Source: Ustilago trichophora (lineage: Eukaryota > Basidiomycota > Ustilaginomycetes > Ustilaginales > Ustilaginaceae). Taken from it: a DNA stretch of 64,000 nucleotides. Below, piece after piece: positions 30,076 through 32,472 of the stretch; the first letter of the stretch is position 1, and the number at the start of each line of letters is the position of its first letter. The notes below the pieces were generated by a model that saw only the letters and a list, made by a program, of their open reading frames with translations, made no database searches and had not been told where the DNA came from. Where the stretch lies: positions 62,001 to 126,000 of the forward strand of contig OOIN01000025.1 of NCBI GenBank assembly GCA_900323505.1, given 5' to 3'. The translations under genes were made by a program, and so were the position numbers.

Positions 30076-32472
30076 ATGCCACAAGAAACCCTAACTTTTC
30101 CACCCCTATACTGCCTCGTGGGAGCATATCGACTATTCCACGATCCCACGCTATGGCGACCCATGTGGGCAAAATGCAGCAAAGCCGCCAAACAAGCTTC
30201 CATAGTAGGATTCACCTGGGCGCTCCTAACTTGGCCTTTTCAGAAACTCTTCGTCTACTACTTCATGTCCGCTTCCGCGAGCGTCACTGGTCTAAGCGGG
30301 ATCTATTGGAAAGTAGTCCAAACCGCTGATGTTACAGATGATAAATTGCCGTTTAGGATCCCCGTGCCTAGCTAACAGAGTACGTAAATCCTCCCCTCCC
30401 CCCTCTCTTTCCCCTCCCTTGCGGCTTGTGCTTTTCGATATCCAAGACTTCACTTGGAAGCAGAGCTGCTTGGGACGGAGGTAAAGCTGAAAGCTGACTT
30501 TTGTGGTTGCATTCGTTGTTTGGTAGCGTTCGCAACGTTTATGTTTGTCATTGGTCAGGTACATGCGATTATGGAATTTTGGCTTCGTCGAAAGCTGAAA
30601 GAATGTCGTTCCACCGCATACGTTCAAACGGTCAAATCCAGGGGGAAAGCGGCAGACTGGTGGACAGAATATGTGGAAGAATTCTCAAACCCTCCCACCA
30701 AAAAAGCCATCAAAGATGCTAAAAAGCAAGGATGGTATCTGAAACTGGCTAGCCCTCTTGTGCGCTTTTTTATTCTCAAAGGTATGTTTTCCTCTCCCTT
30801 CCTCGTCTTCTTTTGATAGGGTGTACTGACATTATCACGTTTAAATTGGGATGTGGTAGTGTTTTTGCTGCCGGTGGACTTTGTCCCGTTTTTCGGCATG
30901 GCGTTGGGAGCGGCCCTACGATCCCTCACGTATGGACGAACTTTGCATGTTCCATTCTTTGAAGCCAAACGAATGTCACCATTCCAAATCGAACTTTGGA
31001 TCACTGAACGACAGCATGCCTATCGATCCTTCGGCTTTGTTGCCGCCCTCATGGAACGTATCCCACTCATCGGGATGGTATTCTCCATCTCCAACAGGAT
31101 CGGTGCTGCGATGTGGGCTCACGATTTGGAAAAGCGACAACAGCGTATCCGAGCCGTCACCACTGGACAATCTTCTTCTGGTTCTTCTTCTGCAATTGCC
31201 CCGGCACCTGGAAGTGGTGATGTTGGGCTGGAAGAGTTCAAGTCAAAGCCCACGCTCAAAAAGATCTACAAGACCGTCCAGCAAGAATCACACCAGCAAG
31301 GGCAAGCAAACGATAAAGAGGATCAGGGGGGAAGCTTCAATGGTGAGGGACAAGCGATTCTACGTTCTACGGGTAGAGAAACAGTGTTTACCAATCTCTC
31401 TTTCACTTTTCCGTTGAAACTGATTGCTCCACGTACAAGTGCCCGGAACGCTACCTTTGAAGTCCTGAACCCCGATCCTACCTCCTCTCTCACTACCTCA
31501 ACCACGAAGCCTAAACCAGTTTCACCGCTGTATATCGTCGGATATGGTGGTGGATTGGTTAGTGGTGATACTGTTGATCTGGACGTGGATGTCGGATCCA
31601 ACTCCACACTGCTGATTTTGACACAAGGTAGTACGAAGGTGTTCAAGACTCGAGACAGTAACCCTACGACCGGGGTGAGTACTGCAACATTTACCACCGT
31701 TGCACCACCACGAGGTGAAGAATCAACAGTGAAAGGGGGGAAGGGGAAAGGTATGACGAGGCAGAATTATCGATTTCTCGTTCGGAAGAATGCAATGTTG
31801 GTATTGCTACCTGATCCGGTGACGTGTTTTGCGCAAGCGAGGTATGATCAGGTGCAAAGATTTGACTTGAGATGTGGGGAGAGTTGCTCATTGGTGGTTT
31901 TAGATTGGATTACGCCTGGACGAACGTTTGTTTCTGCCGCATCACCATGTTCTGGGGTCAAGTTGAACCATCTTGACCAGCATGAAACATGCGACGAGGA
32001 AAGGTCAGGCAGAGGAAAGATGTTGAAAGACTATAGGCCCGATGATAGGGAGGCTGAATGGTGGGCGTTTCGAACGTATCGGAGTCGAAATGAGGTACGA
32101 ATTTTGGGTCGAACTGTTGCTCGAGATGTACTTTTATTATCTCAAGACCGAGTTGAAGGTGGGGTTAGCGAGCTGTTTAGGAGAAATCATCCTTTTGCAT
32201 GCTATGCAACTTTACTCCTCGCAGGACGTGATTGCCAACCCATTATCCAAGGTCTAACCGAAGAGTTTGGTGCTATTCAACAACGACCCACCACTTCGTT
32301 GTGGAACGAATCAGAAGGGGTTCTGTGGAGTCTCTCGCAATTGGAAGAGATAACGGTGGTCAGAATCGCAGCGAAGGATTCACAAACGGTAAGGAAATGG
32401 TTGTATGAAAGATTGAATGGTTTACAGGCTGTTATTGGGCGGGATTTGTATCGTCAAGCGCTGGCATCGTAG
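30076..32472 (+). CDS. Putative fusion: EI24/Rrt8-like membrane protein joined to urease accessory UreD domain
   Basis: At least three exons. Exon 1 starts at ATG 30076 and encodes a hydrophobic segment (SIVGFTWALLTWPFQKLF). Its end is unresolved: weak donors occur at 30313 and 30364, and phase-0 acceptors at 30465 and 30480. Exon 2 ends at 30781; intron 30782-30859 (GTATGT...GGTAG, phase 1) is clear. Exon 3 is 30860-32472. The N-terminal ~300 residues have the fungal EI24/Rrt8/Lds pattern: PVDFVPFFGMALGA, YRSFGFVAALMERIPLIGMV, then GAAMWAHDLE. After a polar linker of ~85 residues comes a UreD domain: FPLKLIAPRTS, GYGGGLVSGDTVDLDVDVGS, TQGSTKVFK, LPDPVTCFAQARYDQ, LDWITPGR. UreD delivers nickel to apo-urease with UreF and UreG. 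No in-frame ATG lies between the domains, so one polypeptide is the simplest reading. Domain calls are solid; the fusion needs transcript proof. Confidence 0.75.
30782..30859 (+). other. Intron in the EI24-UreD gene
   Basis: 78 nt, phase 1, GTATGT donor and GGTAG acceptor. Splicing joins FFILK to VFLLPVDFVPFF, restoring a membrane segment typical of the EI24 family. Confidence 0.85.

What the first reader, a model, noticed from the sequence alone, without database searches (positions are those of the whole stretch)
30076..32472. Apparent fusion of an EI24/Rrt8-like membrane domain to the urease chaperone UreD
One spliced frame encodes a multi-pass EI24-like N-terminus and, after an ~85-residue polar linker, a complete-looking UreD domain. 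There is no in-frame ATG between the last EI24 residues (GAAMWAHDLE, ~31100) and well inside UreD, so a separate UreD start is hard to place. UreD is normally a soluble partner of UreF/UreG; tethering it to an ER- or lipid-droplet-type membrane protein would localise urease maturation. I know of no description of this pairing, though I cannot search.
Basis: partly seen in the sequence, partly recalled or inferred. Interest (0 to 1): 0.75.

Follow-up and report, generated by a model that had tools for sequence, protein, structure and literature searches.

The report
Urease helper fused to membrane protein
In a smut fungus and several of its relatives, a helper protein that switches on the enzyme urease appears to be made in one piece with an unrelated membrane protein, which would tie a normally free-floating step to a membrane; the copy in this stretch of DNA itself carries an early stop.

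Summary
The fusion is real at the DNA level. The window is Ustilago trichophora. Exon 3 (30860-32472) runs unbroken from a CysZ/EI24-fold membrane domain through a 64-residue linker into a full UreD domain (PF01774, 161.5 bits; cut-off 27). A diverged second copy in the same genome is intact and shows the same fusion; these two are the genome's only UreD hits.

The database model of this copy (617 aa) starts inside exon 2.

Twenty-two retrieved proteins or open frames are fused, covering nine named species in three orders of Ustilaginomycetes. Outside that class the two parts are separate proteins, on different contigs in 12 of 13 species that could be paired. Trees fit one fusion event.

I read the product as a membrane-tethered UreD. 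No transcript or protein evidence was available; localisation is inferred. No paper holding both EI24 and UreD was found in the library searched.

Also seen: UreG in this genome is fused to MYG1, in both copies, so two of the three urease chaperones looked for (UreD, UreF, UreG) are C-terminal passengers.

The parts
30076..30379 (+). exon 1: start of the CysZ/EI24-fold membrane domain, with an in-frame TAA at 30373-30375 in this copy
   Evidence: splice sites and frame match the intact C19 copy; 99 codons before the stop show no amino-acid difference between copies at dS 0.77
30373..30375 (+). TAA stop codon in exon 1 of the window copy (CTG in the C19 copy)
30380..30526 (+). intron 1 (GTACGT...TAG)
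   Evidence: same place and phase in the C19 copy
30527..30781 (+). exon 2; the database model of this copy (P0004, 617 aa) fits a start at ATG 30541
   Evidence: start position inferred from length and sequence
30782..30859 (+). intron 2 (GTATGT...TAG)
30860..31143 (+). exon 3, first part: end of the membrane domain, to HDLEKRQQ
   Evidence: weak PF07264 match; CysZ fold of the S. reilianum orthologue
31144..31335 (+). linker, 64 codons, no in-frame ATG; holds LEEFKSKPTLKKIYK, shared in part with other fused sequences
31336..32472 (+). UreD with its N-terminal lead-in (FNGEGQAILR) and the stop codon; PF01774 match spans 31531-32385
   Evidence: UreD/UreH fold of the S. reilianum orthologue

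Best explanation
This is a lineage-wide gene fusion, probably made once in an ancestor of the Ustilaginomycetes. A CysZ/EI24-fold multi-pass membrane protein was joined in frame, by a linker, to nearly the whole of UreD, which took the place of its old C-terminal tail. The likely product is one polypeptide: a membrane anchor with UreD on a 36-73-residue tether. The confidence below is for that single tethered chain. Shown here: the continuous frame, its conservation in the sequences retrieved, tree positions that fit one origin, and no other UreD hit in this genome. Inferred: that the ribosome makes the whole chain, that UreD faces the cytosol (the membrane part ends in the basic stretch KRQQRIR), and that it gathers UreF, UreG and apo-urease at that membrane so that nickel loading takes place there; I hold this last step at about even odds. 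In this strain the window copy carries a stop in exon 1, so the full-length protein is expected from the C19 copy.
Against: No RNA or peptide evidence; the fused proteins are gene models or genomic open frames, some visibly faulty (P0016, P0018). The window copy has an exon-1 stop. An internal start at the conserved Met of MWAHDLE (31111) could give a soluble UreD; that Met is also conserved in stand-alone relatives. One unnamed relative (P0024) is called as a protein starting in the linker, though a contig of the same length (22,499) also yields a frame with exon 1 (P0110). Support for one origin is only 75/93 in the UreD tree. Localisation was not tested. U. maydis was not identified by name among the listed hits, and the lists are capped.
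Confidence: 0.78

Rival explanations
1. A passenger fusion (a rival on function, not on the single chain): the chain is made whole and sits in the membrane, but the two halves keep their old, unrelated jobs, and the tether gives no special local urease maturation.
For: The two halves evolve at different rates (dN/dS 0.016 and below against 0.154); the linker varies from 36 to 73 residues; the paper searches made gave no functional link between the EI24 family and UreD (listings only).
Against: Found in three orders with no clear split form among the named members of that class retrieved; 14 of 21 linkers hold KPTLKK(I/L)Y and 19 of 21 a looser form.
Confidence: 0.4
2. Two proteins from one locus: an internal transcription or translation start (Met 31111) gives a soluble UreD, while the long form is minor.
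For: A conserved in-frame Met lies just before the linker; the database start of the window copy is already internal; P0024 is called from the linker.
Against: No stop of its own ends the membrane domain in the 22 fused sequences (they were gathered with a fused query), so its translation must run into UreD; the Met is also conserved in stand-alone relatives.
Confidence: 0.12
3. The chain is made whole and then cut in the linker, freeing UreD.
For: A basic stretch shared by 19 of 21 linkers, in a region modelled with low confidence.
Against: No cleavage motif was tested; the stretch is missing in Violaceomyces and Thecaphora.
Confidence: 0.08
4. Gene-model or assembly artefact that merges two neighbouring genes.
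For: Gene finders can merge neighbours (general knowledge); the P. hubeiensis model runs on into sequence that the other fused proteins lack.
Against: In the raw DNA of both copies here one frame runs through both parts without a stop, and fused proteins from other species and unnamed contigs agree.
Confidence: 0.02

Closest known systems
UreD / UreH (PF01774), the urease accessory protein; Ure4 in Cryptococcus
   Different: Of 99 non-fused UreD rows retrieved, 88 are 300-480 aa long and none carries the membrane anchor; here UreD's own start is gone and a membrane protein precedes it.
CysZ / EI24 superfamily (PF07264)
   Different: In my own scan with PF07264.17, eight of nine proteins score below the 32-bit cut-off (best 28.1) and one gives no match; the genome has a separate clear EI24 gene on C2 at 78 bits.
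Stand-alone basidiomycete relatives of the membrane domain (e.g. P0023, Sympodiomycopsis)
   Same: Identity to P0023 is 60-64% for the three fused membrane domains aligned with it.
   Different: They end in their own tails: 17 of 75 stand-alone rows with the anchor have a PPxY motif after it, none of the 22 fused ones.
Rrt8/Lds1/Lds2 of yeast
   Different: No Rrt8 sequence was compared here.

Membership tests
UreD (PF01774) | curated profile cut-off (27 bits) | tested here: met
   161.5 bits for the window frame, profile positions 1-200 of 201
UreD (PF01774) | UreD/UreH fold | tested here: met
UreD (PF01774) | binds UreF and activates urease | not testable with these tools
   needs biochemistry
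EI24 (PF07264) | curated profile cut-off (32 bits) | tested here: inconclusive
   not reached in my scans: 16.9 bits for the window frame, 22.6 for P0001, best 28.1 of nine proteins; but precomputed lists assign PF07264.18 to P0009, P0014 and P0018
CysZ/EI24 fold | same membrane fold | tested here: met
Rrt8/Lds lipid-droplet proteins | sequence relatedness to Rrt8 | not tested
   no Rrt8 sequence was at hand
Rrt8/Lds lipid-droplet proteins | lipid-droplet or ER localisation | not testable with these tools
   needs microscopy

The most novel reading that the evidence does not exclude
Smut fungi have rebuilt urease maturation around fused chaperones: UreD is tied to a membrane by a CysZ-fold anchor, and UreG rides on MYG1. 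Nickel insertion would then happen only where the two host proteins meet, making urease activation depend on organelle or membrane state.
Probability: 0.22. Interest if true: 0.85.

Novelty: new variant of a known kind. Interest (0 to 1): 0.6.

Why it matters
UreD is generally treated as a soluble scaffold of the UreF/UreG complex (general knowledge). A fungal class that carries it as a membrane-bound fusion would suggest that urease can be matured at a membrane. It gives a natural test of where nickel is loaded, and suggests a link between urea use and the host membrane protein. The fused partners may also hint at what this CysZ-fold family does in fungi.

Tried and rejected
Merged-gene artefact: rejected on raw DNA of both copies. 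Stand-alone UreD elsewhere in the genome: none found. A second gene for this membrane domain: none found with P0023; the PF07264 model found a different gene on C2. Transcript evidence among unnamed contigs: several proteins run on into introns and so look like unspliced genomic frames. P0008 and P0010 cross the exon 2-3 joint, and P0049 the exon 1-2 joint, without extra residues; that could be cDNA or intron loss and I cannot tell, so I did not count it. Other donors to step over the TAA: the GT sites before it are out of phase with the conserved acceptor, or would drop 11 residues by using the AG at 30558 (from the list; reasoning mine); not excluded as a minor form. PDB by sequence: only weak UreD hits, no relative of the membrane part, and none at E 0.001 for the UreD profile.

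Papers: ten searches. EI24 with UreD: 0 papers. MYG1 with UreG: 0. One search was uninformative because 'ured' also matched rust-spore words. One search gave one paper that, by its title and abstract, is about making itaconic acid in Pseudomonas. What I saw: passages of PMC8951962, PMC3744438, PMC8092133, PMC3697809 and PMC4966473; listings only for the rest. None was read whole.

Limits on the counts: searches scored only about 8000 candidates each, and one search listed 120 of 225 hits. The 22 fused sequences were gathered with a fused query. The UreD tree used 40 of 46 intended rows: six stand-alone rows were dropped because my cut motif missed them; P0018 was left out and P0024 counted as fused. 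The membrane tree used 33 chosen rows. The 12-of-13 contig comparison was made by eye from names and contig lengths. It covers six Exobasidiomycetes, three Pucciniomycotina yeasts and four Agaricomycetes (the last two groupings from memory). The exception is Plicaturopsis crispa. Different contigs in draft assemblies do not strictly exclude neighbours. On the tail, of seven named Exobasidiomycete rows with the anchor only three (Sympodiomycopsis, Parajaminaea, Tilletiaria) have PPxY; Ceraceosorus and three Tilletia rows do not.

Full report
Where it is. The genome search places the window at G000:C24:62001-126000 of a 38.8 Mb assembly of 45 contigs. Two proteins found by search, UTRI_05135 and UTRI_05135_B of Ustilago trichophora, sit on contigs of 713,646 and 692,910 bases, the lengths of C19 and C24, so the organism is U. 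trichophora.

Gene structure. The window copy has exons 30076-30379, 30527-30781 and 30860-32472, with GT..AG introns of 147 and 78 bases. The C19 copy (L003:3048-5539) has the same layout and translates without a stop to 747 aa by my splicing; its database model is 774 aa and carries extra residues at the intron-1 joint. DNA identity is 80% over a 1905-column alignment from 30070 to 31913. In the window copy codon 100 is TAA (30373-30375) where C19 has CTG. The database model of this copy is 617 aa and starts MFVIGQ, which fits ATG 30541. The 99 codons before the stop show no amino-acid difference between copies at dS 0.77, so the stop is probably recent, or an error; nothing here decides.

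The join. After the last membrane residues (HDLEKRQQ) comes a 64-codon linker (31144-31335), then UreD. In-frame ATGs are at 31111 and next at 31753. A linker of this composition stays open in 948 of 5000 shuffles, so one sequence alone proves nothing. Between the two copies dN/dS is 0.20 in the linker (64 codons, 5 gap codons), against 0.00 (exon 1) and 0.016 (rest) for the membrane part and 0.154 for UreD. Among 21 measurable linkers the length is 36-73 residues, with a Met in 2 of 21 (P0007, P0014); 14 of 21 hold KPTLKK(I/L)Y and 19 of 21 a looser form. The far end of the linker in Violaceomyces and Testicularia (PLRTDH, before NGEGLAVLRS or AGEGLAVLRS) and Thecaphora (PTRTEQ) resembles the start of stand-alone UreDs such as Tilletiopsis (PLRTETYTGSGLAVLRA): UreD was joined nearly whole, minus its start codon.

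Who has it. 22 retrieved sequences carry the membrane anchor followed by UreD. Named species are in Ustilago, Sporisorium, Pseudozyma, Testicularia, Violaceomyces and Thecaphora, from the orders Ustilaginales, Violaceomycetales and Urocystidales (four species looked up). These are gene models or genomic frames, and the P. hubeiensis and U. bromivora models look faulty. In the Exobasidiomycetes, Pucciniomycotina and Agaricomycotina retrieved, the two parts are separate proteins (five Exobasidiomycete species checked). None of 99 non-fused UreD rows carries the anchor. For 13 species where both could be paired by name, contig lengths differ in 12 and agree in one, Plicaturopsis crispa, where the distance is unknown. 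Trees: membrane domains, 10 fused of 33 rows, one clade at 100/97, with a tool warning about long branches; UreD, 22 fused of 40 rows, one change, support 75/93, found in 76% of bootstrap trees. One ancestral fusion is the simplest reading; the UreD tree alone is not strong.

What was lost. 17 of 75 stand-alone rows with the anchor carry a PPxY motif after it, against none of the 22 fused. The named ones are Exobasidiomycetes (Sympodiomycopsis, Parajaminaea, Tilletiaria), but Ceraceosorus and three Tilletia rows lack it, so whether the fused lineage's ancestor had it is open. Several also end in a KRKVPPPPxPPRK-like stretch. That PPxY motifs bind WW domains is recalled.

The pathway. The genome holds two copies each of urease and UreF, a NicO transporter in two copies, and UreG in two copies. 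In C. neoformans the UreD, UreF and UreG homologues Ure4, Ure6 and Ure7 are described as essential for urease function (PMC3697809, passages). Here the only UreD hits are the fused ones, so if this fungus makes active urease by the usual route, the fused gene should supply UreD. Whether it makes active urease was not tested.

A second fusion. UreG (TIGR00101, 269.5 bits, cut-off 204.2) lies in one open frame behind a MYG1 domain (PF03690, 431.2 bits), through a His-rich stretch, in both genome copies. The joining stretch of 36 codons has dN/dS about 0.11. The genome's only MYG1 hits are these two. No paper holds both MYG1 and UreG in the library searched. I could not test how widespread it is.

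Mechanism. Shown: continuous frame, conservation among the sequences retrieved, no other UreD hit. Inferred: whole-chain translation, cytosolic UreD on a tether, urease maturation at the membrane.

Noticed in passing
L022:325-2121 (G000:C40) and L023:52-2121 (G000:C41): UreG is fused behind a MYG1 (UPF0160) domain in one open frame in both genome copies; the genome's only MYG1 hits are these two.
   Followed up: partly
G000:C24:20115-20915 and C19:509566-510363: A NicO nickel transporter lies about 72 kb before the fused UreD gene on the same contig in both copies; linkage may be chance.
   Followed up: no
whole assembly, 38.8 Mb: The assembly holds two copies of UreD, UreF, urease and MYG1-UreG, while two reports give 20.7 Mb for U. 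trichophora strains (PMC4966473, PMC8951962, passages), which suggests a diploid or hybrid genome.
   Followed up: partly
window 30373-30375: TAA in exon 1 of the window copy where the other copy has CTG; could be a recent disabling change or an assembly error.
   Followed up: partly
P0023, P0040, P0055 and other stand-alone relatives: C-terminal tails with PPxY (17 of 75 stand-alone rows) and in several a KRKVPPPPxPPRK-like end; no PPxY in the 22 fused proteins.
   Followed up: partly
window 28592-29488 (+) and 33004-34956 (-): Neighbouring frames that look by eye like transaldolase and an Mrs2/CorA-type magnesium transporter (names recalled, not searched).
   Followed up: no
P0197 (Ceratobasidium sp. 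392): A 740-aa gene model joins UreD to a PF02586 domain; may be merged gene models.
   Followed up: no
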